A stretch of 57,464 nucleotides of DNA from a virus. The position numbers and the translations under genes are program-made. Of this stretch, positions 3,798 to 31,949 are shown one piece after another; position 1 is the stretch's first letter; each line of letters starts with the position of its first letter. The DNA is taken from the IMG/VR virus record IMGVR_UViG_3300017917_004798, positions 1 through 57,464 of that record; one strand, given 5' to 3'. The notes under the pieces are model-generated. The model saw nothing but the letters and a program-made list of their open reading frames with translations, did not search any database and was not told the origin of the DNA.

Positions 3798-4772
3798 TTA
3801 CTTTATAATTCCAGCTCGAACTAGCATCGCTCGCATTTCAAAGTCAATGTCTTCTTTAAGTTTAGTTTTAAAGTCAAATGCTATTGGCTGGAGTGCTGCT
3901 CTTTGAGATGCTGTAATACCTGTTACAACTAGTTTGTATTTTCTGTCTGCTCCTTCACCCGTTGGTTCAACTTCAAATTTTGCACTTGGAACGTCCCCTA
4001 GTTTGGCTTGCAATTGTTTGCGAAGTTTATCTGCTTGATCTGCTGTATTTACTGTGGTGGAGAGTGGTGGTACTTCCTCTGCTTTTGGTTTTTCAATTGT
4101 TTTGGGTGTTTCTGTTTCACCTGCCTCAATACTAATTACATTATATCCTACCCCAGCATTGTTGAATATAGTTTTGAGTACTTTTTCGAGGTATGCTTTA
4201 GTGTTGAATGGGTTTTCCATTGAGGAAGGAAATATGATTTTGCCATCTTCCACTTTATAGTTTATATCTTTCTCCAATTTACCAGCGTATTTTTTTAGGT
4301 TTGCTGGGGTTTTCATTGGAAAATAATTTGCCCCATAGCGACCAACTAGCTCTTTTGGTAGTGATTTGCCTGGTAGGGTAAATAGATAGTCATTTAGGCT
4401 ACCATCGTTTCCTTCTGCTTGCCATTTTTCATAGCCTGCTTCTGCTTCTTTTTCAGTAGCGGTCCATGCTTGTGGTGCTCTATTCTTGATGTCAATTAAC
4501 TTGAATGCTTTTTCGTCCTCTGAGCGTGAATCCCAGTCTTTCCATGCAGCACCTGCTTTTTGTGCTGGGATTGAAGGGCCGAAGGCTTTTGCAATGGCTT
4601 TAGGGTCACGCATGTTTTGCGCGTATATTCCGTAGTTGTCAATGGTATCGAGTGCTTTTAAAGCAGCATCCATGGATTCAGGTTCAACAGCTAGATCGTA
4701 TTTGACACGAAGTTGCTTTTGTTCTCCACCTTCTTCGTCCTCTATTTCGCGTAGAATATCAGTTAATTTCAT
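3798..4772 (-). CDS. Unknown phage protein with a MKLTDILRE leader
   Basis: This is a 324-aa soluble protein; I set the start at ATG 4772, since upstream codons lack ATG. The first residues, MKLTDILREIEDEEGG, share the pattern L-x-DIL-x-E with two unlinked proteins (19343-19780 and 29508-30227). In T4, short N-terminal leaders ending in L/I-x-E target internal proteins to the prohead and are cut by the gp21 protease, so this could be a head-internal protein (inference). The rest has Lys/Ala-rich helices, a Pro/Glu linker near residues 225-250 and a small C-terminal alpha/beta domain. No enzyme motif is seen. Confidence 0.6.
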   Translation of the reverse strand: MKLTDILREIEDEEGGEQKQLRVKYDLAVEPESMDAALKALDTIDNYGIYAQNMRDPKAIAKAFGPSIPAQKAGAAWKDWDSRSEDEKAFKLIDIKNRAPQAWTATEKEAEAGYEKWQAEGNDGSLNDYLFTLPGKSLPKELVGRYGANYFPMKTPANLKKYAGKLEKDINYKVEDGKIIFPSSMENPFNTKAYLEKVLKTIFNNAGVGYNVISIEAGETETPKTIEKPKAEEVPPLSTTVNTADQADKLRKQLQAKLGDVPSAKFEVEPTGEGADRKYKLVVTGITASQRAALQPIAFDFKTKLKEDIDFEMRAMLVRAGIIK

Positions 4773-13619: not shown

Positions 13620-13766
13620 TTAATATAGACTAATAACTATTTCTTTATTTAACCATCCTATTATAAATTCTACATATCCATTTAAACGTCTATGGTATGT
13701 AAATTTTACAAATGGAAGAACATATACTTGATCTAGTATATTATATATTTTAATTCTATTTAACAT
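13620..13766 (-). CDS. Small ORF of 48 aa after folE2, unknown
   Basis: A 48-codon frame starts at ATG 13766, overlapping the end of folE2 by 7 bases, and stops at TAA 13620. It fills what would otherwise be a 150-base gap. It reads MLNRIKIYNILDQVYV, then a hydrophobic and Arg-containing middle and a VEFIIGWLNKE end. The overlap and the dense packing around it favour a real gene, but there is no homology I can cite. Confidence 0.4.
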   Translation of the reverse strand: MLNRIKIYNILDQVYVLPFVKFTYHRRLNGYVEFIIGWLNKEIVISLY

Positions 13767-14764
13767 ACTAAACTTCTATATACTTCTACTGGCACATCTG
13801 GGGTTAGGCCACCAGGTATACCTTTTACTAGTACTGAAATGGCATCATGTGAATGGAGTGATTCTAAGTGGGAGCAGATTATTTTGAAATCATGTATGGA
13901 TGAGTTGTTTTCAAGTTGTTCATGAATTAATCTAGCAGCATCTTCTACAAATTTTAGATTAGCACCGTTTAATTCAGCAAATGCTTGCTCATCTTCACGT
14001 TTAACCATAACTTGGGTTTCTGTTTTCAATGCTTCTACACACATGTCTCTCAAGTCCTCGATCCATACCATTTCACTAAACTCAATAGTAATACGTGTTT
14101 TACTACGTTGTGAATGAGAAACTACAGCCTTATTACGTTCTTCCATAGCTTGCATAGCTAACTCAAAGGAACAAGGGCAAGCGGAGGAATATACAAAATC
14201 GAAGTGAATGAATTTCTTTAAAGTATCGTCTGATTTGTGGTGGGCTTCTAGGGATACGTTATAGTATTGGTATCCTGATAAGCCACTGCGTAATGAATTT
14301 TGGATGATGGGGAAACTAAAATTTAAAATAATATGTGCATCGTATGATCCCAATTTATCTTTGTAACTAGAAAGAATACTTTCTAGTAGATCTATTGAGA
14401 ATGTTTGATCCTTATATTCATAAAATGAACGCATAATCCTAGACATATTAATACCTTTTTTTTCTGCTTCTAGTGATACGGTTCCAGTAACACCGGTTTC
14501 TAATTCAATAGTGCTGCCGTCTTTTTTCTTAAAAGTTAGAGGCAATCTAAAATTATGTATGCCTACTTGGTGAATTTTAGTATGGGATCCTTGAATGTTG
14601 GAAGAAGGACCATTTTGTAAATCATGCAAAGTAGAAATATATTCTTCTGTTGCTTTAAAACCAGTATCATATGTGCGATCTAAACGATTGCCTAATGAAT
14701 TTGGATCATCTTTGTACGGTAATGAACCTTCATCACCTAACCATTCATAAGTTGTGTTTTTCAT
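13760..14764 (-). CDS. folE2: GTP cyclohydrolase IB (FolE2)
   Basis: This 334-aa protein has the COG1469 signatures: HQVGIHNFRLPL near residue 70, SLEAEKKGINMSRIMRSFYE, SACPCSFELA with the metal-binding Cys and HSQRSKTRI. FolE2 makes 7,8-dihydroneopterin triphosphate from GTP, the first step of the preQ0 pathway. It clusters with queE, queD and queC upstream. Phage preQ0 clusters usually carry the unrelated FolE1; the type used here is the one that does not strictly depend on zinc. Confidence 0.93.
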   Translation of the reverse strand: MKNTTYEWLGDEGSLPYKDDPNSLGNRLDRTYDTGFKATEEYISTLHDLQNGPSSNIQGSHTKIHQVGIHNFRLPLTFKKKDGSTIELETGVTGTVSLEAEKKGINMSRIMRSFYEYKDQTFSIDLLESILSSYKDKLGSYDAHIILNFSFPIIQNSLRSGLSGYQYYNVSLEAHHKSDDTLKKFIHFDFVYSSACPCSFELAMQAMEERNKAVVSHSQRSKTRITIEFSEMVWIEDLRDMCVEALKTETQVMVKREDEQAFAELNGANLKFVEDAARLIHEQLENNSSIHDFKIICSHLESLHSHDAISVLVKGIPGGLTPDVPVEVYRSLVC

Positions 14765-14773
14765 ATATTTGAA

Positions 14774-15058
14774 TTAATCTTTAATTGTAACTTCTTTTAT
14801 ATTATATTGTTGCATATATCTTTTAATATACGATTTTCCTATACCAATGTCAAGGATTTCGCAATCATCTGGGATAAGAGGGGTATGTTTTCTGGTGGTA
14901 ATGATTGCATCTACATTGAAGTTTGTGTATGTGTTGAGGTAATTGGTTTTACCTTTTTTGTATACAACACATGTTGTAATTTTTTCAGTTGCCGGTCTGC
15001 CGGTTCTTACTGGGGGTGTTGTGGATGCGGTTTTTTTCGAAGGTCTGCCTCTTCCCAT
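14774..15058 (-). CDS. Small AT-hook-like protein, unknown
   Basis: This is a 94-aa protein from ATG 15058; an upstream TTG at 15139 lies in a hairpin and is unlikely. The first 30 residues hold two RGRP/TGRP motifs (MGRGRPSKK and RTGRPATEK), followed by a small alpha/beta domain (ILDIGIGKSYIKRYMQQY). It shares the layout of the 7015-7377 protein: an N-terminal AT-hook-like motif and a short compact domain. It may be a DNA-binding regulator. It lies just upstream of folE2. Confidence 0.6.
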   Translation of the reverse strand: MGRGRPSKKTASTTPPVRTGRPATEKITTCVVYKKGKTNYLNTYTNFNVDAIITTRKHTPLIPDDCEILDIGIGKSYIKRYMQQYNIKEVTIKD

Positions 15059-15119
15059 AACTTTAATTTTTATTGTAAAAATACTCAAATAACTATTTGT
15101 TATTTGCTTTAATATATGA

Positions 15120-15135
15120 AGGAGCTTTCGCTCCT
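15120..15135 (-). terminator. Hairpin with GAAA tetraloop after the thioredoxin gene
   Basis: AGGAGC-GAAA-GCTCCT on the minus strand is a 6-bp stem closed by a stable GNRA loop, followed by TTCATATATT. It starts 9 bases after the thioredoxin stop codon. Confidence 0.55.
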
Positions 15136-15144
15136 CCAAATATT

Positions 15145-15390
15145 TTATCGATTATATAGAGCTCGAATTTCGTCTTTGGTTTTAACTCCAACTGCACGTC
15201 CGATTTCCATACCATCTTTGATAACAATAACGGTTGGAATTGAGCGTATGTTCCATGTTGTGGTTGTTTGTGGGGAAGCATCTATGTCAATGAATGTGAT
15301 AGACATTTCTGAGCGTAATGATTCCATTATGGGTCGGAATGATTTGCAAGGTTGGCACCAAGTTCCGGTAAAATATAGTACTTGTTTCAT
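15145..15390 (-). CDS. Short thioredoxin
   Basis: This 81-aa protein has the thioredoxin active site TWCQPCKSF at residues 10-18, then ITFIDIDASP, and the cis-Pro segment RSIPTVIVIKDG. It is a minimal thioredoxin fold without the usual N-terminal strand. The likely role is to reduce the phage ribonucleotide reductase (nrdA and nrdB are in this window) or to serve general disulfide reduction in the host cytoplasm. Confidence 0.9.
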   Translation of the reverse strand: MKQVLYFTGTWCQPCKSFRPIMESLRSEMSITFIDIDASPQTTTTWNIRSIPTVIVIKDGMEIGRAVGVKTKDEIRALYNR

Positions 15391-15461
15391 TTTGTTATGA
15401 TGTAATTAATTTGGATGTTGTCTCCAAATGTTGTTGTCGTTGTATACATATTGTTTTAATT

Positions 15462-16349
15462 TTAAACATCTAATGTTTTGTCCCAAGCTGAGATATGCAG
15501 GCGGGTTAAACCTACAAATTTGTATTTCTTTGCCATTTCCAGTACCCATTGAGTTCTTTCATGGAAGTCATCTTGACTGTCCAAACCAGGCATACAACAT
15601 ACTTTTTTCAATGGAATATTGAATGGTTCAATGAAATCTCTAAATATTTCTTGAATATCTTCTTCGTTTGAAATAACGAATTTAAATTGGTAGTTATCAT
15701 GTTCTATGATTCGTTTGATGGCTGCAGGCACTATACGTTGTTTTTCTGTCATGCCTGAGTTGGATAATTTGGGTGAGCAGTTGATTTGGTCTAGAAGATA
15801 GAATAGATCGTCTTCTATGTAAATAGTGCCGTTTGTTTCTATTTCATTGTAAAAACTTCGGGAGAATGGTTTATTAAAATATCTAGAAATATGGTACTTA
15901 AGGTTACTACTAATTACATCTAGATCTTGGGACATCCAATATTTATGGAAATTCACAATTGCCTCTTGATGTCCTTTAATTGTGGGTTCACCACCAGTCC
16001 AAATAATATGGATAAGTCCACTTCTTACATCATCGTATATGCCCTCCTCTTTCCATCTGTCAATCAAATATTGAAAATCTTTGTTTTCTCCCCTAAATAA
16101 CCATTGGGATGTTGAATCGCATGTCCAAGTTGCCTTTCCTTCAGTATGTAAATCACCCTCAAATATTTCACCATTTTCCAATGTTTTTTCCTTCATTAGT
16201 TTATTGGTGAACAAGCGGGACATCCCGCATGTTAAATTGCAGTTTCCTAAACGTACAAAGTATGATGGTACACCTGTGGTGAATCCTTCTCCTTGCACAC
16301 TGTAAAAGTCACTGGAGATTAGTAGTTGGTTTTTTTCTATTTTGCTCAT
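15462..16349 (-). CDS. queE: 7-carboxy-7-deazaguanine synthase (QueE), radical SAM
   Basis: This 295-aa protein has SVQGEGFTTGVPSYFVRLGNC at the start and IIWTGGEPT in the middle, both diagnostic for QueE. It converts 6-carboxytetrahydropterin to 7-carboxy-7-deazaguanine using SAM. The cluster cysteines are at about residues 37 and 41 and then at 77 (WTCDS): an insert of 35 residues separates the second and third cysteines where most QueE proteins have two or a modest insert. A basic C-terminal part (VLEMAKKYKFVGLTRLHI) completes the barrel. Its start overlaps the upstream stop as ATGA. Confidence 0.92.
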   Translation of the reverse strand: MSKIEKNQLLISSDFYSVQGEGFTTGVPSYFVRLGNCNLTCGMSRLFTNKLMKEKTLENGEIFEGDLHTEGKATWTCDSTSQWLFRGENKDFQYLIDRWKEEGIYDDVRSGLIHIIWTGGEPTIKGHQEAIVNFHKYWMSQDLDVISSNLKYHISRYFNKPFSRSFYNEIETNGTIYIEDDLFYLLDQINCSPKLSNSGMTEKQRIVPAAIKRIIEHDNYQFKFVISNEEDIQEIFRDFIEPFNIPLKKVCCMPGLDSQDDFHERTQWVLEMAKKYKFVGLTRLHISAWDKTLDV

Positions 16350-16747
16350 TGGTTTTTATGTATGTAATATTTAATATGGTATGTTATTCCCGTAATATAT
16401 GAAAGAGAAGTGGGGGGTCCAAATAAAGAACCATAGTTAAGTTCAGTTTCTATAAAGAATCTTATTTTATATGTGTTTTCTTTTAATAGATGATATATAA
16501 ATTTTCTATAAAGTTGGGTAGTTTGAGTTAAATTTCCTACATCTTCACTTTGAGTAACCGTATATTGGAATGGGAGGGACTTTTTGTTAGTTTTTATGGA
16601 TGATTGGATGTTAATTTTCCAAAGGAGTTGAATAAGTTCTTCTTCTTTCTGTTTTTCTATATATGGTTGAAAGTCTTCCCAATTTTTTCCCCATCTATTT
16701 TTACAGTAGTTGTTGAAATTATCTATACCATTTATGGGTAATATCAT
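16346..16747 (-). CDS. Unknown protein in the preQ0 cluster
   Basis: This is a 133-aa soluble protein with no recognised motif. It has an aromatic, Lys-rich N-terminus (NYCKNRWGKNWEDFQPYIEKQKEEE, helical) and a beta-rich C-terminus. Both ends are ATGA overlaps: with the queD-like gene upstream and with queE downstream. Such tight coupling on both sides suggests a function linked to the pathway or to its complex, but that is inference. Confidence 0.55.
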   Translation of the reverse strand: MILPINGIDNFNNYCKNRWGKNWEDFQPYIEKQKEEELIQLLWKINIQSSIKTNKKSLPFQYTVTQSEDVGNLTQTTQLYRKFIYHLLKENTYKIRFFIETELNYGSLFGPPTSLSYITGITYHIKYYIHKNQ

Positions 16748-17175
16748 ATTATTACATCTATTTTGGATACTGTTACTCTTCCTTCAAGTTCATCATATAT
16801 AAATTTAGAAAGCACATTATGTAAATGTTTTGAAATACCTTCTTCGCTGGTATTCTCTAGTGTTCTTAATTGGATGATCCCCTTTTTACCCATTTCTTGG
16901 AATTTGGGTAAGTATGGATCATCAGTTGAAATTAGACATGTATGATCAAACATATATGAGAAATAGTCTTTTGGGGACATTCCTTGAATTGTATTTTTTG
17001 CTCGTTTAAATAATCCAAAATCTGCAACCCAATTGCGATGGTCCATTTCCCCTTCAAAGTAAACTCTGAATTTTAAGTCGGTGCCGTGGAGGAAAGCTGT
17101 TTGATTGGGTGATTTATGGTTTCTATAGCAAGTGCTAAATCCATCTATTAGTTTTGATGATTGAAACTTTTTCAT
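16744..17175 (-). CDS. queD: 6-carboxytetrahydropterin synthase-like, QueD paralog A
   Basis: This is a 143-aa T-fold protein. The catalytic Cys is in FSTCYRN (residue 16), LHGTD stands where the HGH zinc site normally is, NWVADFG is the usual structural motif (about 49-54), MFDH at 75-78 supplies the Asp-His of the catalytic triad, and SEEG gives the late substrate-binding Glu. QueD makes 6-carboxytetrahydropterin from dihydroneopterin triphosphate. One zinc ligand is altered (HGT, not HGH). It retains the catalytic residues lacking in the second copy at 18131-18676. Confidence 0.8.
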   Translation of the reverse strand: MKKFQSSKLIDGFSTCYRNHKSPNQTAFLHGTDLKFRVYFEGEMDHRNWVADFGLFKRAKNTIQGMSPKDYFSYMFDHTCLISTDDPYLPKFQEMGKKGIIQLRTLENTSEEGISKHLHNVLSKFIYDELEGRVTVSKIDVII

Positions 17176-18083
17176 ATTTTATGTTGTATATATATTGATT
17201 TTATATGTTTATTAAATATACTATTCTCTATTTGGGGGAGGAAATAATCTATTGATTTTTTATACTTTTGTATAGGTTTTTTATCCAATAAAAAATCTTC
17301 TTCAAAAAGAAACAAACATTTGATATTATTTTCAGTATAAAATTTAATTTTTTCATTCATCCTATCTTTATAAACACCCACATTAGACATCCCAAAAATT
17401 TCTATAAATGTTCTACTTTTAGGAAGATAAATATCAGGGGAATAATTTTTACCTTTATAAGAAATTCTTACATTTGTAAAATATTTCACATCTGATTCAT
17501 ACAAGTAATCTGCTATTTTTTCTTCCCATGTTGATAAAAATTTATCCCCCCTTGAATTATAATATGAATTATAATCCCCAGAATAGAACCGTTCTATAGA
17601 ATGATATGTGGCATATTCTTCAGGAGTAAGAAATTTTTTTCTTATGTTGCGTATGCATACTCCATCTATATTTTTTATGATTCCCATCTGGTCATTTCCT
17701 ATTCCTTTTTTACTTCCATCTAGGATATCTTGGATATCTTGGTCTGTTAATTTATGTGAAGATATTTTAGGGGTTTGAAAGTGATTGATTATGTTTTGAT
17801 TTGATGTTTTATGAATTACTTGCTCTAATGAGTGATTAGATGTATTAGTATAATTTGTAATTTTTGATTTTGTCCCAGTATATGGAAATAATTTAATTGC
17901 TTCTAATATTTTGTTTTCTAATTCTTTATCTAATTCTAAGGAATTAGAGCAATATTTGTTTATGATTGTACTAACAGAACTTCTATTTAATCCTAATTGG
18001 TCTGCTACCCAATATTTCCCCTTTTCTTGGTTTTGTAAATATAGAGAAATAATTTTTTCTTTATCCAATGTATTTCTATTCAT
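17172..18083 (-). CDS. Homing-type endonuclease with HTH and PD-(D/E)XK-like domain
   Basis: This is a 303-aa protein. The N-terminus (KIISLYLQNQEKGKYWVADQLG, then NRSSVSTIINKY) is a helix-turn-helix; a second HTH-like segment follows near residue 115. The C-terminal domain has SPDIYLPKSRTFIEIFGM and NIKCLFLFEEDF, the pattern of a PD-(D/E)XK/Vsr-like nuclease. It sits between the two queD-like genes, preceded by the ATATTTATAA box and ending in an ATGA overlap with queD paralog A. The gene is strongly AT-rich compared with its neighbours. Confidence 0.75.
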   Translation of the reverse strand: MNRNTLDKEKIISLYLQNQEKGKYWVADQLGLNRSSVSTIINKYCSNSLELDKELENKILEAIKLFPYTGTKSKITNYTNTSNHSLEQVIHKTSNQNIINHFQTPKISSHKLTDQDIQDILDGSKKGIGNDQMGIIKNIDGVCIRNIRKKFLTPEEYATYHSIERFYSGDYNSYYNSRGDKFLSTWEEKIADYLYESDVKYFTNVRISYKGKNYSPDIYLPKSRTFIEIFGMSNVGVYKDRMNEKIKFYTENNIKCLFLFEEDFLLDKKPIQKYKKSIDYFLPQIENSIFNKHIKSIYIQHKI

Positions 18084-18095
18084 GGTAGTGTTTTA

Positions 18096-18105
18096 TTATA
18101 AATAT
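18096..18105 (-). promoter_or_regulatory. ATATTTATAA box (late-type promoter candidate)
   Basis: Minus-strand ATATTTATAATAAAA, 12 bases before the ATG at 18083. Flanking GGTGTT and AACAC can pair imperfectly around it. Confidence 0.5.
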
Positions 18106-18130
18106 TAACACCATGCATAAAAATGCATTT

Positions 18131-18676
18131 CTATAATAAAGCTATCCCACTATTTTTATCATGTTCCCAAGTTTCAACTTTAATACATCTGCTATCTACT
18201 CCAAAATCTGAAAGAATTTTGTTTAGGTTATCTAGTACAAATTCGGAGAATCGTTCACATCCAACTTGGGGGAGTTCAACTAAATCAATGATTTTGTTGG
18301 TGTGAAGATATTTAAATGATTCTAATTCAGGATCATCAGATGCTACAAATGTTTTATAATTAAAAGTTAATTCAAACCATTCATGTATGTAATTACACAA
18401 TTCAGGATAATCTTTTAAGTCAGTATTAAAAGTTAATTCAAACCATATTTTGTAAGCATGGGTAAAACGGCAATGTGTTCCTTCTGCTTTCCATTGGCGA
18501 AAACAAGATGTAAATCTATTTGTCTTCCAAAGGGTATTTGTAATTTTTACCATATTATTTTTGTTTTTCCATTTTATCCATTCCTCTGGTGTCATTGAAT
18601 CTAAAGCTGAATCTAATTCTTCGTTTAATTTATCCCAATTAGCCATTGTATCTTGTTTTATATTCTTCCCATCCAT
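18131..18676 (-). CDS. queD: QueD-like paralog B, catalytic Asp-His replaced
   Basis: This is a 181-aa protein. After a 45-residue helical extension (KLNEELDSALDSMTPEEW) comes NRFTSCFRQWKAEGTHCRFTHAY, with the Cys (residue 58) and zinc-site region of QueD. SDDPELESF, VELPQVGCERFSEF and VETWEH continue the fold. The DFG segment is missing and the expected FDH is FNY, so the Asp-His pair is absent. The segment WFELTFN occurs twice, 22 residues apart, encoded by a 22-base perfect repeat. It may be a structural partner of paralog A, a new activity, or decaying. It overlaps queC by 38 bases. Confidence 0.75.
   Translation of the reverse strand: MDGKNIKQDTMANWDKLNEELDSALDSMTPEEWIKWKNKNNMVKITNTLWKTNRFTSCFRQWKAEGTHCRFTHAYKIWFELTFNTDLKDYPELCNYIHEWFELTFNYKTFVASDDPELESFKYLHTNKIIDLVELPQVGCERFSEFVLDNLNKILSDFGVDSRCIKVETWEHDKNSGIALL
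18359..18446 (-). repeat. 22-bp direct repeat inside queD paralog B
   Basis: ATTAAAAGTTAATTCAAACC (first 20 of 22 bases, plus strand) occurs at 18359-18380 and again at 18425-18446, in the same reading frame and 66 bases apart. It encodes WFELTFN twice. Confidence 0.85.
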
Positions 18677-19346
18677 TTGCTCTTAATTGGCATGCTGGGC
18701 AGAATGGGTCTTCTTCTGTTCCTTGCTCAGAACTCCAACCCCATTTAAATTGGTATAAACGTTGTCCGTTATAGCAAGTGTGGGAGAGTTGGATTACATC
18801 TTCTAAACATCCTTCATCTACTGCTAATTTAAATGTATCTGCTTTGTCTAAGTACATTAGTGGGGTTTCAATGGTTAAACCGCTTGTATTTTCTCCAAAT
18901 ACACCCATTTCCATGGTTTTTAAAAGTTGATCGATAAAATCACGTCTACAGTCAGGGTAACCGCTATAATCTGTTTGACAAACCCCTGTCACCAAAGCAT
19001 CTGCTCCAACTTTTAAAGCATAAACATACGCGTTGTAAAGGAAAATACCGTTTCTCCCAGGTACAAATGAGGATGGTAAACCATATTTGTTAATCTGGGA
19101 TACATCTCCATTTGATGTTAAAGCACTTTCAGCTAAAAACCCAAGTGATTGATCTAGATTAACTACAATTTGTTTTACACCTGTTTTTTCAAGTATTTTT
19201 TTAGATTGTTCTATTTCAATGTCATGTTTTTGACCATATTGGAATGTAATGGCTTCTACTTGTTCGTATCTGTTTAAGGCCCAATACAAACATGTGGTGG
19301 AGTCTTGACCACCAGAAAATACTACAATTGCTTTTCCTTTGTTCAT
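18639..19346 (-). CDS. queC: 7-cyano-7-deazaguanine synthase (QueC)
   Basis: This 235-aa protein has the PP-loop SGGQDSTTCL, the segment SSFVPGRNGIFL, and the zinc site formed by HTCYNG and CPACQLRANGWEEY. QueC uses ATP and ammonia to turn 7-carboxy-7-deazaguanine into preQ0. Nothing is fused to it. Its ATG overlaps the upstream gene's stop as ATGA and its end overlaps the queD-like gene, so the cluster is an operon. Confidence 0.96.
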   Translation of the reverse strand: MNKGKAIVVFSGGQDSTTCLYWALNRYEQVEAITFQYGQKHDIEIEQSKKILEKTGVKQIVVNLDQSLGFLAESALTSNGDVSQINKYGLPSSFVPGRNGIFLYNAYVYALKVGADALVTGVCQTDYSGYPDCRRDFIDQLLKTMEMGVFGENTSGLTIETPLMYLDKADTFKLAVDEGCLEDVIQLSHTCYNGQRLYQFKWGWSSEQGTEEDPFCPACQLRANGWEEYKTRYNG

Positions 19347-19780
19347 ATATAATTGTTTACGTTAATAACTTTATTGTTTACCATATCATTAGATATTTGT
19401 CTAAATATACGTTCTATTTTTTGGTTTAGCAAGGATAAATCAGAATAGTCTATATGATATGATGGTTTATAGTAATCGGTTTCAATGTCTTGTATAAGGT
19501 CCTCTAGTTGGTATATTTCACCTAATGGCTCTTTCCACAGCAATTTCACCAAATCACGTTCTTTTAATGTGTTTGTGGTGTATCGTTTAATGTCCCGTAA
19601 CCATCCATTTAATTTACCTTGCCAATGTGGTTGATTTTTGGAGGTAGGGTACATCAGTATTTTGAGTAGTTCTCTACTAGTATTTAAGCTAAGGTCCCGG
19701 GTTTTGTCCATGGCTACTTTTCTGGAGTATGCCATTTCGAATATTTTGGTTTCAATTAGTATGTCTAGTAGTTTGGTCAT
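19343..19780 (-). CDS. Unknown protein with a LLDILIE leader
   Basis: This 145-aa protein starts MTKLLDILIETKIFEMAYSR. The first 11 residues match the leader of the proteins at 29508-30227 and 3798-4772. The body is helical (LNTSRELLKILMYP, KLNGWLRDIKRYTTNTLKERDLVKLLW) with no recognised domain. If the leader is a capsid-targeting sequence cut after LIE, this would be a head-internal protein, yet it lies inside the preQ0 operon with an ATGA overlap onto queC. Confidence 0.6.
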   Translation of the reverse strand: MTKLLDILIETKIFEMAYSRKVAMDKTRDLSLNTSRELLKILMYPTSKNQPHWQGKLNGWLRDIKRYTTNTLKERDLVKLLWKEPLGEIYQLEDLIQDIETDYYKPSYHIDYSDLSLLNQKIERIFRQISNDMVNNKVINVNNYI

Positions 19781-19782
19781 TT

Positions 19783-19926
19783 CTATAGCTTGTTTGCTAT
19801 TTTTCTGATTGTTTCCTCATCTTCTGCACTTAAACGCAAACGTGACATTGGCTTTAATAATTTTAAAATTATATCGTGCCATTCTTGGTCTAGTGTATTA
19901 CTGTTTTTCGGATAATTCTTTGCCAT
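19783..19926 (-). CDS. Small ORF of 47 aa, unknown
   Basis: It runs from ATG 19926 to TAG 19783. It reads MAKNYPKNSNTLDQEW, then an amphipathic helix (IILKLLKPMSRLRLSAEDEE) and RKIANKL. It overlaps the next small ORF upstream by 29 bases in another frame and stops 3 bases before the next start. The composition is protein-like and the spacing fits the operon, so I consider it probably real. Confidence 0.5.
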   Translation of the reverse strand: MAKNYPKNSNTLDQEWHDIILKLLKPMSRLRLSAEDEETIRKIANKL

Positions 19927-20074
19927 ATGGTTCTTTATTTAATTTATCAAATTCTGCTTTTGGTAGGCCCCTCATTAACATATAAGCTTCAAAGTCAATA
20001 TCCAAGAGTCTCCAATGGTTATGCCACTCTAGCTTCCAGAGTTTGCGATATCCTTCAAATGTTTCTTTACTCAT
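19898..20074 (-). CDS. Small ORF of 58 aa, unknown
   Basis: It runs from ATG 20074 to TAA 19898. It reads MSKETFEGYRKLWKLEWHNH, then WRLLDIDFEAYMLMRGLPKAEF. It is rich in aromatic residues. Its ATG falls just after the TAA of the upstream gene at 20077, so it is in the same transcript. Function unknown. Confidence 0.55.
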   Translation of the reverse strand: MSKETFEGYRKLWKLEWHNHWRLLDIDFEAYMLMRGLPKAEFDKLNKEPYGKELSEKQ

Positions 20075-20076
20075 GG

Positions 20077-20337
20077 CTAAAATGGTAAATCATCATCTTC
20101 AAGATTTCCCATCCAATCGTGTCCTTCAGGTAAATCTTCATGGATTGAATTTGGTTCTCTAAAGTAGAATTCGAGGAAATCTTCTGGGTATAGAAGGACT
20201 ATACCTTCATATTTTGGGTTGGAGATTTCTCTGGTTTGTAGTTTAATACCTGCTTTACTAGCTGCGGCTGCTACTTCTTTGCCTAACTGTCCACCTGCTG
20301 GTTTTCCTAGGTAATCATATAAACTTAAATATTTCAT
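20077..20337 (-). CDS. Small protein with an SSB-like acidic tail, unknown
   Basis: This 86-aa protein has a Lys/Gly/Ala-rich N-terminus (GKPAGGQLGKEVAAAASKAGIK) and ends in EDDDLPF. That tail is almost the same as the DDDMPF end of this phage's gp32 and the DDDIPF end of bacterial SSB, the segment SSB uses to contact partner proteins. It may mimic or compete for those contacts. A hairpin and a GTATATT box lie upstream, so it heads the transcript running into queC. Confidence 0.6.
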   Translation of the reverse strand: MKYLSLYDYLGKPAGGQLGKEVAAAASKAGIKLQTREISNPKYEGIVLLYPEDFLEFYFREPNSIHEDLPEGHDWMGNLEDDDLPF

Positions 20338-20356
20338 AACTTAATTATTTTATATT

Positions 20357-20363
20357 AATATAC
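20357..20363 (-). promoter_or_regulatory. GTATATT promoter-like box
   Basis: Minus-strand ATTCGTATATTAATA, 19 bases before the ATG at 20337. It follows the hairpin at 20375-20397. Confidence 0.45.
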
Positions 20364-20374
20364 GAATAAAAGAT

Positions 20375-20397
20375 ATGGACTCCAAACTAGAGTCCAT
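20375..20397 (-). terminator. Terminator-like hairpin overlapping a stop codon
   Basis: ATGGACTC and GAGTCCAT form a perfect 8-bp stem with a 7-base loop containing the TAG of the upstream gene. ATCTTTTATTC follows on the minus strand. Confidence 0.65.
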
Positions 20398-21187
20398 TTA
20401 TTTCACGAAATTTTTCTACATTATATAGTACTAAATCTTCATTTACAAACTCTAAACTTATGTCTTGATATTTGTTCATGTTGGCCAATGGTTTTGAATA
20501 TAGGCCCATATTTGTATATGGTAGTTCTCCAATTGCAGCCATAATTGGGTTTGAAGTATCAATGGACTCTATACATTTGGTATTTTTGTACATTCCAAAT
20601 TCGATCGGAGAGCTTGTACCCAAGAGGTGGACTCGATCTGTATCTGTTAAAATACCATCGTTACATAATTGCGAGATAACCATAAAGCGTCCAATTGCTT
20701 TACCCAAATCTTTGTTTGGGTGTGGGCATACTTCGTTGTAGTATGAAGCACCATATGAATATGCTATTTTTCTATAGCCAAAATCTTTGTATGCTTGTGT
20801 ACATAGTACTGCTTCATGGTATGATTTTGCTTGCACTACAGCTACTTTCATTACTCCATCTGGTAGTTCAATTTGTGACCATAGTTTTGCGTTTCTAACT
20901 GATGCTGTGTAGTCCTCCCAGACATCCGGTATAAAAAAGTTTGATGGTTCTAGGATATTAATCCATTTTAAAAGAGTATCAGCATCCATGGAATAACCAA
21001 GTTCATGGAGGCTGTTATCGAGGTAAATTTCAATTCCCCTCTCCTTACATTTGATAAAATGGTTTCTGTATTCCTCGTTTGATTCTAATAAGTGGGGGAG
21101 AGCATACTGATAGTCGCAAAAGTCAAGGCTTTTCTCTAATAAGCAAAAAGGTACTTCATGACTTACAAGAATTTTTTTGTTTTTCAT
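20387..21187 (-). CDS. dpdA: TGT-like DNA transglycosylase (DpdA-like candidate)
   Basis: This is a 266-aa protein. The order of motifs fits the tRNA-guanine transglycosylase TIM barrel: IYLDNSLHELG (possible catalytic Asp), FFIPDVWEDYTAS, VMKVAVVQAKSYHEA (counterpart of GVVQG), FGYRKIAYSYGASYYNE, and RVHLLGTSSPIEFGMY with SIDTSNPIMAA. Phage DpdA proteins of this superfamily insert a 7-deazaguanine into DNA. The genes that make preQ0 lie directly downstream, which strongly favours DNA modification over tRNA modification. The assignment rests on motif order and context; similarity to well-known TGTs is distant. Confidence 0.75.
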   Translation of the reverse strand: MKNKKILVSHEVPFCLLEKSLDFCDYQYALPHLLESNEEYRNHFIKCKERGIEIYLDNSLHELGYSMDADTLLKWINILEPSNFFIPDVWEDYTASVRNAKLWSQIELPDGVMKVAVVQAKSYHEAVLCTQAYKDFGYRKIAYSYGASYYNEVCPHPNKDLGKAIGRFMVISQLCNDGILTDTDRVHLLGTSSPIEFGMYKNTKCIESIDTSNPIMAAIGELPYTNMGLYSKPLANMNKYQDISLEFVNEDLVLYNVEKFREINGL

Positions 21188-26792: not shown

Positions 26793-28520
26793 TTAACCTT
26801 CACAACTAATACATGAACTTTCATCTCGTTGGATAGCATCTCCCCTTAAAATACTTTCGCTACGGCAATAGTACAAAGTTTTAATGCCTTCTTTCCAAGC
26901 TAATTTATGCACATCACTAATATATTTGGGTGAATCGGATGGATCAAACGTTAAATTCAACGAGATAGCTTGATCTACATATTTTTGTCTGATTCCGTTT
27001 TGGCGAACAATCTCGTATGGGTTAATTTCCTTGAATGTAAGGAATATTTCTTTTTCCTCATCCGTTAAAATATAGTCAGGTAACCCCAGAACAGATCCTT
27101 TATCTTTAGCGATTTGTTCCCAAACGCTATCTATGTTGTATCCTTTAGATTCAAGTAGTTTTTCTAGCGTTGGATTTTTCTTGATGAATGTGCCCTTTGC
27201 TGTTTTCAAATTATATACATTAGCTGGGATGGGTTCAATTGAGGGTGATACACCACCTGAAATATGTGCGTTTGAAACTGTTGGGGCAATTGCTAAATGA
27301 TGTGAATGACGCAATCCAGTTCCTTTACACCATTCTGGTTCGCCATATTCTTTTGCTTGGTCACGAGATGCTCTTAGGGCACCTTTTTCGATAAAGTCAA
27401 ACATCAAACGTGTGTATGAGTTTGCCTGTAGACCAGCAAATGGGATTCCTTTTTCTTGTAGAAACGTGTGCCATCCCAAAACACCAATTCCAATTGCTCT
27501 ACCTTTGGAAGCTGAGCGGTATGTGTTTTCCATGAAACGGATATTTTTTGCTCTATCGATGAATTCTTGCAATACACCCTCCAAAAACCAACAAGTTAAC
27601 TCTGGGAGGTCCATTCCATTTTCAAATTTGTATTCTTTCCATTCATCCCAACGTGCTAGGTTAAGGGAAGATAGACAACAAATAAATGAATGTAATTCAT
27701 CTGTGTAGAGTGCAATTTCTGAACATATATTTGTGATTGAAACATGCAAATTATTCTTCTTGTATGCTTCAGGGTTTGCATTGTTCACATTATCCTCAAA
27801 CATGATATATGGCTCGCCTGTCTCAAGTCGTGTTTTCAATATTTCGCCCCACAACTTTAATGCTTTTGGATCACGTGCCTCAACTTTGTTCATGAATTCA
27901 TCATCAATTACAACACATTGATGTAGATTCAAGCATTGGCGGTTAACATCGCCTTTTGGTCGTCGAATCATTAAGAATTCCTCAATGTCTGGGTGATTAA
28001 TTGATAGGTTGACTGATGCTGCTCCTCGACGCACTGAGCCTTGGTTTGTGGCTAAAATAGTTGAGTCATATATTTTGCACCATGGAACTACTCCCTCTGA
28101 TACTCCATTGCCCGAAATTGTTTTACCGCGTCCTCTGATGCGGGAAACACCAATACCAACACCTCCACCTTGGGAAGATAAACGCATTAGTTCTGCGTTG
28201 GTGAGTGCAATTCCTTCAATCGAGTCGTCTGTGTCAACTCCAAAACATGAAATTGGCATACCACGTTCTGTTCCCATATTTGAAAGTACGGGTGAAGCTA
28301 AACATAGCCAATTTTTAACCATTGCCTCGTAAAAGTATGGTTGAAGGTCTTTACGTTTTAGTCGTTTTGCTGCCGCTCGGGAAACGCGTTTGAATGCTCC
28401 AAATACATCTTCATCAGGTAGTAAATAACCTTTTGAGATCATTGATAGAGAAATCTCGTTCATAAACTCTGGGTAGTTTTTTCCTTTAACCCATTTACTA
28501 GTATCTACTTGTATGCTCAT
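26793..28520 (-). CDS. nrdA: Ribonucleotide reductase alpha subunit (class I, NrdA)
   Basis: This 575-aa protein has PISCFG (first active-site Cys), SSQGGGVGIGVSRIRGRG, SVRRGAASVNLSINHPD, NICSEI (thiyl-radical Cys and Glu), CCLSSLNLA, and LYYCRSES (the Tyr pair of the radical path). It ends SCISCEG, a CxxC pair reduced by thioredoxin. It lacks the N-terminal ATP-cone found in longer NrdA proteins, so it should escape dATP inhibition. It reduces NDPs to dNDPs with NrdB. ATGA overlap with the upstream HNH gene. Confidence 0.96.
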   Translation of the reverse strand: MSIQVDTSKWVKGKNYPEFMNEISLSMISKGYLLPDEDVFGAFKRVSRAAAKRLKRKDLQPYFYEAMVKNWLCLASPVLSNMGTERGMPISCFGVDTDDSIEGIALTNAELMRLSSQGGGVGIGVSRIRGRGKTISGNGVSEGVVPWCKIYDSTILATNQGSVRRGAASVNLSINHPDIEEFLMIRRPKGDVNRQCLNLHQCVVIDDEFMNKVEARDPKALKLWGEILKTRLETGEPYIMFEDNVNNANPEAYKKNNLHVSITNICSEIALYTDELHSFICCLSSLNLARWDEWKEYKFENGMDLPELTCWFLEGVLQEFIDRAKNIRFMENTYRSASKGRAIGIGVLGWHTFLQEKGIPFAGLQANSYTRLMFDFIEKGALRASRDQAKEYGEPEWCKGTGLRHSHHLAIAPTVSNAHISGGVSPSIEPIPANVYNLKTAKGTFIKKNPTLEKLLESKGYNIDSVWEQIAKDKGSVLGLPDYILTDEEKEIFLTFKEINPYEIVRQNGIRQKYVDQAISLNLTFDPSDSPKYISDVHKLAWKEGIKTLYYCRSESILRGDAIQRDESSCISCEG

Positions 28521-29068
28521 TTTTTAAATCTTTTTGTTCTGTTTTCGTTAATTGTTAATGGTTGGAGGTTTTGGTAATTCCAACATTCATATATTTCTAT
28601 TTCGTTTTCAAAGTTAAAAATTTCTATAGGTTTAATATGGTCAATTTCCCAATATTTTCCATAGTTTCCCCAATTCATATCTTTATCAAATTGTTGTTCT
28701 AAATATATTTTAAATTCTTCAATAGAACAACCTAAATATTTAAAAACTGAATTGGTTTTGTTAGTTATTGTTTGGTAAAAATATGCTCTAAGGTTTTCTT
28801 TGAGTCTGTATCCTATTTCTAGTCTTTTTTTCTTTTTATACTCTCTTTGGTATTCTCTATGTTTTTCTTGGTAGATAGGGTCTGTTTTTTTCTTTAACCA
28901 ATTTTCTTTAGCATATTGTTTGTCATATTCTTTATATTTTGGTCTATTATTTTTAATTTGAATGCTATGACATTCTTTACAATATTTCATATACCCCTCT
29001 CTATAGGTTTTTGAAGGGTTAAAATCACAAATTGGTTTGAATTGGTTACATTTGTTACATTCTTTCAT
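28517..29068 (-). CDS. HNH homing endonuclease upstream of nrdA
   Basis: This is a 183-aa protein from ATG 29068. An N-terminal zinc motif (ECNKCNQFKPICDF, then YCKECH) is followed by a basic helical region and the HNH core YWEIDHIKPIEIF with WNYQNLQPL and N-x-x-K. It is a paralog of the protein at 34399-35046 (both have GCSI, NW, WEIDHIKP). It ends in an ATGA overlap with nrdA. ATATGTATAATAAAATG places a promoter-like box right at the start codon. Confidence 0.9.
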   Translation of the reverse strand: MKECNKCNQFKPICDFNPSKTYREGYMKYCKECHSIQIKNNRPKYKEYDKQYAKENWLKKKTDPIYQEKHREYQREYKKKKRLEIGYRLKENLRAYFYQTITNKTNSVFKYLGCSIEEFKIYLEQQFDKDMNWGNYGKYWEIDHIKPIEIFNFENEIEIYECWNYQNLQPLTINENRTKRFKK

Positions 29069-29072
29069 TTTA

Positions 29073-29082
29073 TTATACATAT
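29073..29082 (-). promoter_or_regulatory. ATATGTATAA box at the start codon
   Basis: Minus-strand ATATGTATAATAAAATG, matching the spacing of ATATTTATAATAAAATG at 35046. If used as a promoter the transcript would be leaderless or nearly so. Confidence 0.4.
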
Positions 29083-29112: not shown

Positions 29113-29511
29113 TTAATTTTTATTTAAATATTTTACCACTTCATTTAGGGATTTTAAATATTTGCCCCCATTATTTTCTACCATAACCCCCACTTTATCT
29201 AAAGATTTAATTTGAGATTCATCAAATTTTTCTTTCCCATCTTGTTTTACAAAACAGAATATGGTTTTCTTCGGTCTTTTATTTGAGTCATCTACAACTT
29301 CAGCTATAGAATAAGTTCCCGTCATTTTAGGAGTTATTACATATAAACAGTAGTTACATTCTTCTCTTTCCCTTAATTCATTTTGGTAGTCTTCTTCTGT
29401 CCAATCATCAACTACAGGATTAAAATAATCGATTGTTAATTTGGGAGATATTATATCTCTCCATTTGGAACCATTGCATGTTCCTCCTAAAAATACTTTT
29501 TTCATGCTCAT
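29113..29511 (-). CDS. Nucleoside 2-deoxyribosyltransferase-like protein
   Basis: This 132-aa protein has KKVFLGGTCNGSKWRD, then YFNPVVDDWTEED, CNYCLYVITPKMTGTYSIAEVVDDS, all matching the Nuc_deoxyri_tr2 family. The Asp of NPVVDDW and the Glu of SIAEVV would line the active site. Such enzymes transfer or hydrolyse (deoxy)ribose from nucleosides or nucleotides. It is translationally coupled (ATGA) to the possible ADP-ribosyltransferase upstream and lies between nrdB and nrdA, suggesting nucleotide-pool or NAD-related work. Confidence 0.75.
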   Translation of the reverse strand: MSMKKVFLGGTCNGSKWRDIISPKLTIDYFNPVVDDWTEEDYQNELREREECNYCLYVITPKMTGTYSIAEVVDDSNKRPKKTIFCFVKQDGKEKFDESQIKSLDKVGVMVENNGGKYLKSLNEVVKYLNKN

Positions 29512-30227
29512 AGTTTTATGTCTTTTATTTTTTCTATTGCGTGTGGTGGTATATTGTTTAAAGTATAATATCCATACTTAAAATTAGGATCATAATATAA
29601 TCTTAAATAGTTTCCGGGGATAAAATCGGTATTTATTTTTAATAAAACCCATTCATTTAATCCTGTATCTTGGTAGAATTTTGGGGATAATTTGATTGTA
29701 TTTTGTTCATCTTTCCCCAAATATACTCTTTCGGGGTGATAAGATCTTTTTGATCTTGATTTAGGAACTAATCCAATTTTTTGGATTTTTTCCCAATTTC
29801 TTAATGGAGCTACATGATATAAAACTTCAGGTATTTTATTTACTTTTTGATCAAATTTAGCTTCACATTTTAAATATATTGAAACAACTTTAGGATTTTG
29901 GAATGAATTTTTGACCAATGTTTCATCATATTTATCTCTTATTGAAATACTGTCTCCATAAACTTCCATATAAGAAATAAAATATCCTAGATTATTTAGT
30001 AAAGGTAATAGTTTTTCAAAGTATTGTAATTGTATGCCTTCTTTTAATCTCAAAATTTCTATGGTGAAATCTTTATTCCCCTTTTCGTATTGAAAAATCC
30101 AATTTGAGAATTGTTTTTTTAGAATATAAATTGTTTCCCCTACATGAGTAGATTTTATTAAACCCTCTTGAATATTTAGTTTATATTCTTCTTTATATGT
30201 CTCTAGGAGTATATCTAGTAGTTTCAT
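29508..30227 (-). CDS. Possible ADP-ribosyltransferase-like protein with a LLDILLE leader
   Basis: This 239-aa protein begins MKLLDILLETYKEEY, the leader shared with the proteins at 3798-4772 and 19343-19780. The C-terminal 110 residues have EVLYHVAPLRNWEKIQKIGL, then HPERVYLG, VLLKINTDF and GYYTLNNIPPHAIEKI. A YHxTxxxNxxxIxxxGL opening, a middle YL and a closing IPPxxI are seen in ART-fold families (Tpt1/KptA, DarT-like). In T4 the ART Alt is packaged in the head and injected; the leader here would fit that. Family and function are both inferred. ATGA overlaps on both sides. Confidence 0.5.
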   Translation of the reverse strand: MKLLDILLETYKEEYKLNIQEGLIKSTHVGETIYILKKQFSNWIFQYEKGNKDFTIEILRLKEGIQLQYFEKLLPLLNNLGYFISYMEVYGDSISIRDKYDETLVKNSFQNPKVVSIYLKCEAKFDQKVNKIPEVLYHVAPLRNWEKIQKIGLVPKSRSKRSYHPERVYLGKDEQNTIKLSPKFYQDTGLNEWVLLKINTDFIPGNYLRLYYDPNFKYGYYTLNNIPPHAIEKIKDIKL

Positions 30228-30943
30228 ATTTTCCTTTTACGGTTAATTACTTGTTTGTTTATTTTACCGTAGTCTGGGTTTTCTTGGAATAAAACTTCAT
30301 ATCCTTCCCATTTAAATGGTTTATAGCATTTAGAGTCTTTTTGGATGATACCTTTGTTTACCCATTTACGCACCATTCCTTCAGGGAAACCATATTTCAT
30401 TAAAGATTTCAAATTAGGAAATTCTATTATTTCTCTATCTGGGGTGTATAGAGTGTAGGTTCCTTTACTTTTTCCATAATTTCCCGCTAGTTCTCCAGGG
30501 CGTTTTTTTCCATACATTGGATGAAGGGGTCCTTCCATGTTTTTTACGTATCTGTTATAGAATTCTTCTTCTGTCATGTTTTGGATGGTTTGTTTGTAGC
30601 TTTCTCTTCGTTTTTCTATGGTTTTGGGGTCCCATTTTTTATTGTTTTTACTTTCTTTAACTCTTAAAATTTTTAATTCTTCAATGGCTTGTTTTTTATT
30701 TTCATTTACTCCACTCATCAATCTATATGCTATCCAATTACTATTTGTAGGTTTCCATTTATATAAAAGAAAATGTGCAAAAACATGTTGATTATAAGTT
30801 AATATTACTAAATTACTTTCATCATCATTTCCCCCAGAAGATTTAGGTAAAATATGATGTTTGTGGTATATTTTACCTTCTTCTATTGTTTGGTTTTTAC
30901 ATCTTTTTATATGTTTATAATACAATTCTTTCCAATTTATCAT
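30224..30943 (-). CDS. HNH homing endonuclease
   Basis: This 239-aa protein has the compact HNH core YHKHHILPKSSGGND, then NLVILTYNQHVFAHFLL, followed by basic linker helices and a NUMOD-like C-terminal DNA-binding segment (ITYLYTPDRE-type strand, NLKSLMKYGFPEGMVRKWVNKG). It stands alone downstream of nrdB and is coupled by ATGA to the ART-like gene. An ATATTTATAA box lies 12 bases upstream of the ATG. Confidence 0.9.
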   Translation of the reverse strand: MINWKELYYKHIKRCKNQTIEEGKIYHKHHILPKSSGGNDDESNLVILTYNQHVFAHFLLYKWKPTNSNWIAYRLMSGVNENKKQAIEELKILRVKESKNNKKWDPKTIEKRRESYKQTIQNMTEEEFYNRYVKNMEGPLHPMYGKKRPGELAGNYGKSKGTYTLYTPDREIIEFPNLKSLMKYGFPEGMVRKWVNKGIIQKDSKCYKPFKWEGYEVLFQENPDYGKINKQVINRKRKI

Positions 30944-30995: not shown

Positions 30996-31949
30996 TTAAA
31001 GATCTGACCAGTCTGCAGTTGATTTAGAGTAGTCAGTGCTTCTATTGCTAAAGAAATCGGTGTGACTCTTACCACTTGTTAAATGTCCGAACCACTCCAT
31101 CTGTTTAAGTAAATTTGGATCAATATCATTATAGATAGCTGTATAGCCAAGCTCTATTAGTTTTTGGTTTGCTCTTTCTTTAATGAAATTTTTCAATTGT
31201 TCTTTGTTTAATCCTTCAATACTACCCATTTCAAATGCTTTGTCTATAAAGTCATACTCTAGTTTAACTGAAAGATCACATGCCTCATATATTGCTTGGG
31301 TTAGTTCTTTGGTGTCCAGTTCCGGGTTTTCCTCTAGTAAAGTTCTGTATAACCAGCATCCTGCTTTTGAATGTAAAGATTCATCTCGCACACTGTACTC
31401 TACAATTTGGCCTGTTCCTTTCATTAGGTTACGCAATTGGAATGACATTAAGATAGCAAATGAACTAAATAAATTTACACCTTCTGTAAATGCTGAGAAT
31501 ATGGCAAGGGAAAGTGCTTTTTCGTGTAGAGTATCTCCATGTAGTTCAACTAAACGATCGATTTTGGCTTTGGCTTCCTCGTCTTCCATGAATGCTTCAA
31601 AGTCATCCAAACCTAGTTCCTCATTTAGGCGAGCGTACGCTTCAGCGTGTATGCTTTCAAAATCAGCAAATGCACACGCCATAGCTTTAATTTCGTGTTT
31701 TGGAAACCATACTGCAACTTTTGTTGCCCAATAATCGTTTACATATGTTTCGGTTTGTGCAAATGACTTTAAAATGTTACCAACTAGATTTTTTTCACTT
31801 TCGGTTAATTTAAGTTTCCAATCATTTAAGTCTGATGCTAAAGGTACCTCATCGGCAAGCCAATGCACACGATGTTGATTTTTGTAGAATTCAAATGCAA
31901 TTTGGTATTCAAATGGTTTGTAGTGTGGACGAAGTGTTGTAATTGACAT
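30996..31949 (-). CDS. nrdB: Ribonucleotide reductase beta subunit (class I, NrdB)
   Basis: This 317-aa ferritin-like protein retains the di-iron and radical residues: FESIHAEAYARL gives Glu, His and the radical Tyr, FTEGVNLF gives Glu, and VRDESLHSKAG gives Glu and His. The first metal ligand falls in QTETYV, a Glu where E. coli NrdB has Asp. It generates the tyrosyl radical for NrdA. The two subunits are 2.5 kb apart because four genes, two of them HNH endonucleases, intervene. Confidence 0.95.
   Translation of the reverse strand: MSITTLRPHYKPFEYQIAFEFYKNQHRVHWLADEVPLASDLNDWKLKLTESEKNLVGNILKSFAQTETYVNDYWATKVAVWFPKHEIKAMACAFADFESIHAEAYARLNEELGLDDFEAFMEDEEAKAKIDRLVELHGDTLHEKALSLAIFSAFTEGVNLFSSFAILMSFQLRNLMKGTGQIVEYSVRDESLHSKAGCWLYRTLLEENPELDTKELTQAIYEACDLSVKLEYDFIDKAFEMGSIEGLNKEQLKNFIKERANQKLIELGYTAIYNDIDPNLLKQMEWFGHLTSGKSHTDFFSNRSTDYSKSTADWSDL

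What the first reader, a model, noticed from the sequence alone, without database searches (positions are those of the whole stretch)
29508..30227. Possible injected ADP-ribosyltransferase with a capsid-targeting leader
The C-terminal part shows an ART-like order of motifs (YHVAPLRNWEKIQKIGL, then VYLG, then IPPHAIEKI). The N-terminus MKLLDILLE ends in L-x-E, like T4 leaders cut by the prohead protease. T4 packages the ART Alt in its head and injects it. No sequence likeness to Alt is apparent, so this would be an independent version. Its gene is coupled to a deoxyribosyltransferase-like gene.
Basis: inference. Interest (0 to 1): 0.75.

Follow-up and report, generated by a model that had tools for sequence, protein, structure and literature searches.

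The report
Phage ADP-ribosyltransferase with capsid-targeting-like leader
This gene encodes a phage-only enzyme of the ADP-ribosyltransferase fold (nearest to tRNA phosphotransferase Tpt1, not to phage T4's Alt) whose front end looks like the tag T4-type phages use to pack proteins into their heads, so it is probably carried in the virus particle and injected into the bacterium at infection.

Summary
The ORF is real (29508-30227, minus strand, 239 aa). It belongs to a previously unnamed phage family: 52 IMG/VR loci plus Lak, huge-phage and Caulobacter phage Cr30 relatives. AlphaFold2 plus Foldseek give an ADP-ribosyltransferase (ART) fold; the 18 best PDB matches are all Tpt1/KptA (E 3e-5 to 7e-4), then DarT1. 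H138, R167, Y169 and D213 are invariant. There is no likeness to T4 Alt. Three of the four catalytic residues that define Tpt1 sit in a lobe this protein lacks. The leader idea is supported by comparison, not direct proof. Relatives encode a T4-type prohead protease (S77). The leader changes between lineages, but (L/I)-x-E|G at residues 19-22 is nearly invariant while the middle residue varies freely. The member in a 482-kb phage carries that phage's own leader, found on about 40 unrelated proteins (44 observed, 3.2 by shuffling). Cr30, a cultured phage, has MKTFKQFFNE on a bare ART domain, almost T4's MKTYQEFIAE. The likelier cut is after E21, not LLE-9 (E9 is lost in several members). Coupling to the deoxyribosyltransferase-like gene is real but not conserved. 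Packaging, injection and NAD activity are untested. New variant of a known kind (head-packaged ARTs).

The parts
29508..30227 (-). ART-family ORF, 239 aa
   Evidence: Open frame; family of 52 viral loci; AlphaFold2 model mean pLDDT 83
30165..30227 (-). Putative capsid-targeting leader, residues 1-21 (MKLLDILLETYKEEYKLNIQE)
   Evidence: Predicted helix 2-20 at low confidence, joined to the body by a pLDDT<50 stretch at residues 17-22; replaced by other leaders in distant members
30201..30209 (-).
   Evidence: Present here; E9 is K in L031, G in L034, D in L040/L042
30159..30173 (-). Preferred cleavage site I19-Q20-E21|G22-L23
   Evidence: E21-G22-L23 invariant in A1; over 46 distinct members with the junction, P3 is L/I in 42, P2 varies, P1' is G in 40
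29850..30161 (-). N-terminal alpha/beta lobe, residues 23-126, ending in the conserved E-x-K-F-D motif
   Evidence: AlphaFold2 pLDDT 92, pTM 0.85; no confident PDB match (best E 5e-3, S6 permutants); E122, K124 invariant in A2
29511..29849 (-). ART domain, residues 127-239 (H138, G152-L153, K156, K160, H164, R167, Y169, D213)
   Evidence: Foldseek to Tpt1/KptA and DarT1; residues invariant or nearly so in A3; Pfam PTS_2-RNA sub-threshold in 18 of 32 members
29113..29511 (-). Nucleoside deoxyribosyltransferase-like gene (PF15891), overlaps the ART stop by 4 nt
   Evidence: Pfam 5e-9; not found beside the ART gene in the relatives' loci
30224..30943 (-). HNH homing endonuclease-like gene just upstream, 4-nt overlap
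   Evidence: PHROG 655 homing endonuclease 1e-25; gap -4
28517..29080 (-). Endonuclease VII-like gene between the ART segment and nrdA
   Evidence: PHROG 1035 endonuclease VII 2e-14
30996..31949 (-). Ribonucleotide reductase small subunit-like (nrdB) flank
   Evidence: Synteny with Immuto nrdB-nrdA, where the two genes are adjacent with no ART gene between; adjacent to ART in L006, L026, L032
26793..28520 (-). Ribonucleotide reductase large subunit-like (nrdA) flank
   Evidence: As above

Best explanation
It is a two-lobe ART with an N-terminal capsid-targeting sequence. Proposed course: late in infection the leader (residues 1-21) docks the protein on the prohead core; the phage's S77 prohead protease cuts after E21 (perhaps also E9), leaving a mature protein that starts GLIK; DNA is packed around it; at the next infection it enters the cell with the DNA and transfers ADP-ribose from NAD to a host target. 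The active site is H138-Y169 with an aromatic or small residue, not Glu, at the third position, in a Tpt1-like fold. The acceptor is therefore more likely a phosphate of RNA, DNA or a nucleotide than a protein side chain, with the unclassified N-lobe reading the substrate. Shown by computation: family, fold, conserved residues, conserved junction, protease in relatives, leader shared with unrelated proteins in relatives. Inferred: packaging, cleavage, injection, catalysis, acceptor.
For: Fold: PDB Foldseek top 18 all Tpt1/KptA, E 2.7e-5 to 7.4e-4, prob 1.00, then DarT1. Weak but consistent profile hits: PTS_2-RNA in 18 of 32 members (best 0.004), PHROG RNA 2'-phosphotransferase in 12 of 24 (best 9e-5), PDB DarT1 0.006 and Tpt1 0.06. 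Junction [L/I]-x-E|G conserved while P2 and the upstream leader vary, and it falls in the only stretch with pLDDT<50. S77 prohead protease in 7 of 18 related records, including one whose ART is 72% identical. Major capsid and protease genes of relatives carry the same kind of site (LLE-9 and L-x-x-E near residue 60 in the capsid protein, LVE/LIE-7 in the protease). The 482-kb phage has a shared leader MKHIKLFExFLNE on about 40 proteins (44 vs 3.2 shuffled, maximum 12) and the 183-kb one 17 vs 1.5; their ART members carry those leaders and, in the 482-kb phage, sit in a run of leader genes. Cr30 MKTFKQFFNE|SLTE + ART domain against T4 IPII/IPIII MKTYQEFIAE. T4 facts: PMC9026906, PMC5694885.
Against: No virion data. 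In the window's own clade the short leader type is not clearly above chance (4 vs 1.0 in the window, 7 vs 4.0 in G001). In the window and several close relatives the gene lies between nrdB and nrdA, not with head genes (though T4 ip genes and alt are also outside the head cluster). No prohead protease or capsid gene is in the 57-kb window itself. PBS1's ART has no such leader. [quoted passage not shown]
Confidence: 0.6

Rival explanations
1. A Tpt1-like NAD-dependent RNA-end or RNA-repair enzyme made and used inside the infected cell, not packaged; the N-terminal helix is just part of the fold.
For: Tpt1 is the nearest fold. Leader-bearing 2H phosphoesterase genes lie next to or one gene away from the ART in three loci (L055, L025, L043), the pairing proposed for phage RNA repair in PMC9503650. 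The gene often sits in the replication/nucleotide region.
Against: The RNA lobe with the Arg-His-Arg residues is absent. The 2H neighbours carry leaders too. The leader-body junction is poorly ordered yet conserved, and leaders are shared with unrelated proteins.
Confidence: 0.2
2. Packaged and injected as proposed, but a protein-modifying mono-ADP-ribosyltransferase functionally like Alt (for example on RNA polymerase).
For: Known packaged phage ARTs such as Alt modify proteins (PMC9503650); ARTs without catalytic Glu, such as PARP10, can modify proteins (general knowledge).
Against: H-H-h type ARTs mostly act on RNA or small molecules (PMC9503650); no Alt likeness.
Confidence: 0.3
3. A catalytically dead ART-fold protein serving as a head or core structural component, or a DarT-like toxin of a toxin-antitoxin pair.
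For: The third active-site position is not Glu; weak DarT profile hit in a relative (PADLOC 0.01).
Against: H138, R167, Y169 and D213 invariant across very divergent members argue for an active site; the neighbour that could be an antidote is not conserved.
Confidence: 0.1

Closest known systems
Tpt1/KptA RNA 2'-phosphotransferase
   Same: ART fold of the C-terminal domain; LYH motif and GL-x-P turn aligned by profile
   Different: No winged-helix RNA lobe, so Arg-His-Arg of the tetrad is missing; second-motif His replaced by Tyr (RVYL); leader present; different N-lobe
T4 Alt (head-packaged ART)
   Same: ART activity class expected, N-terminal cleavage motif of the form [LI]-x-E, gene outside the head cluster
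   Different: No sequence likeness; Alt is 682 aa, cut at ITE-6 and also near its C-terminus (LTE-619, PMC5694885); Alt/VIP2 is a different ART clade
T4 internal proteins IPI-III and their capsid-targeting sequence
   Same: Short leader ending [LI]-x-E before an unrelated mature part; leader shared by otherwise unrelated proteins
   Different: Cargo here is an enzyme-fold protein; leader sequence differs in the window's clade (MKLLDILLE...) though Cr30's is almost T4's
DarT DNA-modifying ART
   Same: Second-best fold match; similar start of the ART domain
   Different: No partner antitoxin seen; sub-threshold profile scores
Phage head-packaged ARTs proposed in PMC9503650 (Alt/VIP2, N4-ART, MuF fusions)
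   Same: General idea that myoviruses pack ARTs and inject them
   Different: This family is Tpt1-like, not fused to a head protein, and inferred to be packed by a cleavable T4-type leader

Membership tests
ART superfamily | ART fold of the catalytic domain | tested here: met
   Foldseek to Tpt1, DarT1 and weakly other ARTs
ART superfamily | NAD-binding His in the first strand and conserved second-motif residue | tested here: met
   H138 and Y169 invariant in 24 divergent members
ART superfamily | NAD-dependent ADP-ribosyl transfer | not testable with these tools
   Needs an assay
Tpt1/KptA | Arg-His-Arg-Arg tetrad (three in the RNA lobe) | tested here: not met
   No RNA lobe: the N-lobe is alpha/beta with no Tpt1 match; definition from PMC6333775. 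The fourth Arg aligns near R/K158
Tpt1/KptA | Pfam PF01885 above curated cut-off | tested here: not met
   13.9 bits vs 26
Alt/VIP2 ARTs | Sequence likeness to Alt | tested here: not met
   HMMs and BLAST against full T4 Alt: no meaningful score
DarT | DarT profile above cut-off and DarG partner | tested here: not met
   No DarT hit for the window protein; weak hits in single relatives only; no partner gene seen
T4-type capsid-targeted internal proteins | N-terminal leader ending in [LI]-x-E | tested here: met
   Near-invariant [L/I]-x-E|G junction
T4-type capsid-targeted internal proteins | Leader shared with unrelated proteins of the same phage | tested here: inconclusive
   Strong in the distant relatives' phages; only marginal for the window's own leader type
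T4-type capsid-targeted internal proteins | Phage encodes a gp21-type (S77) prohead protease | tested here: met
   Present in close relatives; the window is a fragment without head genes
T4-type capsid-targeted internal proteins | Found processed inside virions | not testable with these tools
   No proteomics available

The most novel reading that the evidence does not exclude
Phages across the T4-like and huge-phage range tag large sets of effectors (up to about 40 per genome) with cleavable head-targeting leaders, and this family is an injected Tpt1-type enzyme that modifies phosphates of host nucleic acids or signal nucleotides in the first minutes of infection: a delivered RNA/DNA ADP-ribosylation activity of a kind not yet described.
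Probability: 0.3. Interest if true: 0.82.

Novelty: new variant of a known kind. Interest (0 to 1): 0.6.

Why it matters
Alt has long been the model of a head-packaged ART. Here a different branch of the ART superfamily seems to have been fitted to the same delivery route in many phages of uncultured and Bacteroidetes-type hosts, with a related short ART in one cultured phage (Cr30) where it can be tested at once. The conserved leader gives a simple rule for predicting which unknown proteins of such phages are injected: in one 482-kb phage it points to about 40 candidates. This bears on how phages disarm their hosts at the moment of entry.

Tried and rejected
1) LLE-9 as the sole cut site: not invariant. 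2) Functional pairing with the deoxyribosyltransferase-like gene: not found beside the ART in relatives. 3) T4-type late promoter TATAAATA upstream: no consistent match. 4) Bacterial relatives: a genome-contig scan with A1 found none; with A3 it could not run. 5) N-lobe identification by fold: no confident match. 6) A first alignment of ART domains failed on a frame error and was redone from letters. 7) The spurious top PDB profile hit to CstF-77 was rejected: it covers only the middle of the domain and disagrees with the fold search. 8) A 21-aa leader as a tblastn query found nothing, too short to be informative. 9) The leader pattern of the window's own clade is not significant alone; reported as evidence against.

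Full report
Observation. The ORF lies at 29508-30227 on the minus strand, 239 aa, ATG start. It overlaps the upstream HNH gene and the downstream deoxyribosyltransferase-like gene by 4 nt each. The window is a 57,464-base virus record from IMG/VR; its tail sheath is nearest to Flavobacterium phage Immuto (52%).

Family. tblastn found relatives in Lak phages and huge phages; scans of IMG/VR gave 52 loci at 27-78% identity. A scan of bacterial genomes found none. In many close relatives the gene lies between or beside nrdB and nrdA (L006, L026, L032, and with small insertions L024, L027), in others beside glycosyltransferases (L003, L025, L030). In cultured Immuto nrdB and nrdA are adjacent with no such gene, so it looks like an insert at that site. 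The HNH, endonuclease VII-like and deoxyribosyltransferase-like genes around it in the window are not its constant companions.

Fold. An AlphaFold2 model from 32 sequences has mean pLDDT 83. Against the PDB the 18 best hits are all Tpt1/KptA, then E. coli DarT1, with other ARTs at weak E-values. Sequence profiles agree weakly but consistently: PTS_2-RNA in 18 of 32 members, PHROG RNA 2'-phosphotransferase in 12 of 24, DarT1 and Tpt1 at the top of the PDB profile search of the ART domain. H138, G152-L153, R167, Y169 and D213 are invariant in 24 divergent members. The third ART position holds aromatic or small residues (my reading of the alignment), so the site is H-Y-h, close to the H-H-h clade defined in PMC9503650. 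There is no likeness to T4 Alt. Tpt1's defining Arg-His-Arg-Arg tetrad (PMC6333775) cannot be complete because the RNA lobe is replaced by a confident alpha/beta lobe (pLDDT 92) without a clear PDB match. So it works on a Tpt1-like chassis but is not filed as Tpt1.

Leader. T4 packs IPI-III and Alt with short N-terminal capsid-targeting sequences that gp21 removes after a short motif ending in Glu (PMC9026906, PMC5694885; IP sequences). Close relatives of the window encode the same protease family, S77. Their major capsid and protease proteins carry matching sites. In the ART family the upstream leader changes from lineage to lineage, while the junction [L/I]-x-E|G persists: of 46 distinct members, P3 is L or I in 42, P2 is free, P1' is G in 40. 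The model's only stretch below pLDDT 50 is residues 17-22, exactly here. This is what a protease site predicts; a folded core would be less likely to leave P2 free.

Shared leaders. In G012, the 482-kb phage of member L051, 44 of 704 N-termini fit a CTS-type pattern (mean 3.2, maximum 12 in shuffles), mostly MKHIKLFExFLNE; the ART member is MKHIRSYKQHLEE|GLIKT and is followed by MRHIKLYEEFVVDE and MKHLKLYEEFVDE. G013 gives 17 against 1.5. In G001, G002 and cultured Immuto, other leaders (MKKSELKQIIKEE.., MNKEFLKMQKLAGLITES, MENFDLKKFLVENKLT) recur on unrelated proteins, many near head genes. In cultured Caulobacter phage Cr30 a 106-aa ART-domain protein starts MKTFKQFFNESLTESDDYYYHGTS, almost T4's own leader. 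The window's own leader type is not significant by itself.

Mechanism. The best account is a packaged, processed, injected ART. The acceptor is inferred: the Tpt1-like site without Glu, the known ability of Tpt1 enzymes to ADP-ribosylate phosphorylated RNA ends (PMC6582358) and leader-bearing 2H phosphoesterases near the gene in three loci favour nucleic-acid or nucleotide phosphates, but a protein target remains open.

Novelty. Head-packaged phage ARTs beyond Alt have been proposed (PMC9503650). New here are a Tpt1-like family that matched no curated family above its cut-off, its cleavable leader with a conserved site, and the tie to large leader-tagged gene sets.

Noticed in passing
L014:2944-3264 (Caulobacter phage Cr30, AGS80945.1): 106-aa ART-domain protein behind an almost T4-identical leader, MKTFKQFFNE; annotated only as hypothetical protein.
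   Followed up: partly
G012 (482 kb; L091-L115): About 40 unrelated proteins share the N-terminal leader MKHIKLFExFLNE: a candidate set of head-packaged, injected proteins.
   Followed up: partly
G012:268755-269963 and G012:432854-433381: Two further leader-bearing proteins with ART-like starts (LYHTSPITNSYSIL, IYHFTLFDSLEGIL), by eye; not hit by the A2/A3 profiles.
   Followed up: no
G001:127552-128628: Another possible ART-like protein (LYHFTSPINIWNIL) in a run of leader-bearing genes; by eye only.
   Followed up: no
L055:6699-7241, L025:7978-8541, L043:6781-7200: 2H phosphoesterase genes (PF13563) with leader-like N-termini beside, or one gene away from, the ART gene.
   Followed up: partly
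Immuto NC_055915 102-126 kb (L131): A cultured Flavobacterium phage has three families of repeated N-terminal leaders, many of them near its terminase-portal-protease-capsid genes: suited to proteomic test.
   Followed up: partly
window 3798-4769 (-), 19343-19780 (-), 1246-1713 (-): Other window proteins with leader-like N-termini: MKLTDILREIE, MTKLLDILIETK, MSEEFKRMVELAGL.
   Followed up: partly
window 13760-21187 (-): Genes resembling FolE, QueE and QueC, and a DpdA-like gene at 20387-21187, by eye and by analogy with Immuto: the phage may carry 7-deazaguanine in its DNA.
   Followed up: no
L050:4046-4774, L055:4988-5719 (-), L053:4764-5468, L057:6775-7464, L016 about 2449: Paralogues of the ART family beside or near family members, with junctions FINE|TLKT, ILNE|TLKT or LIVE|GLIY.
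   Followed up: partly
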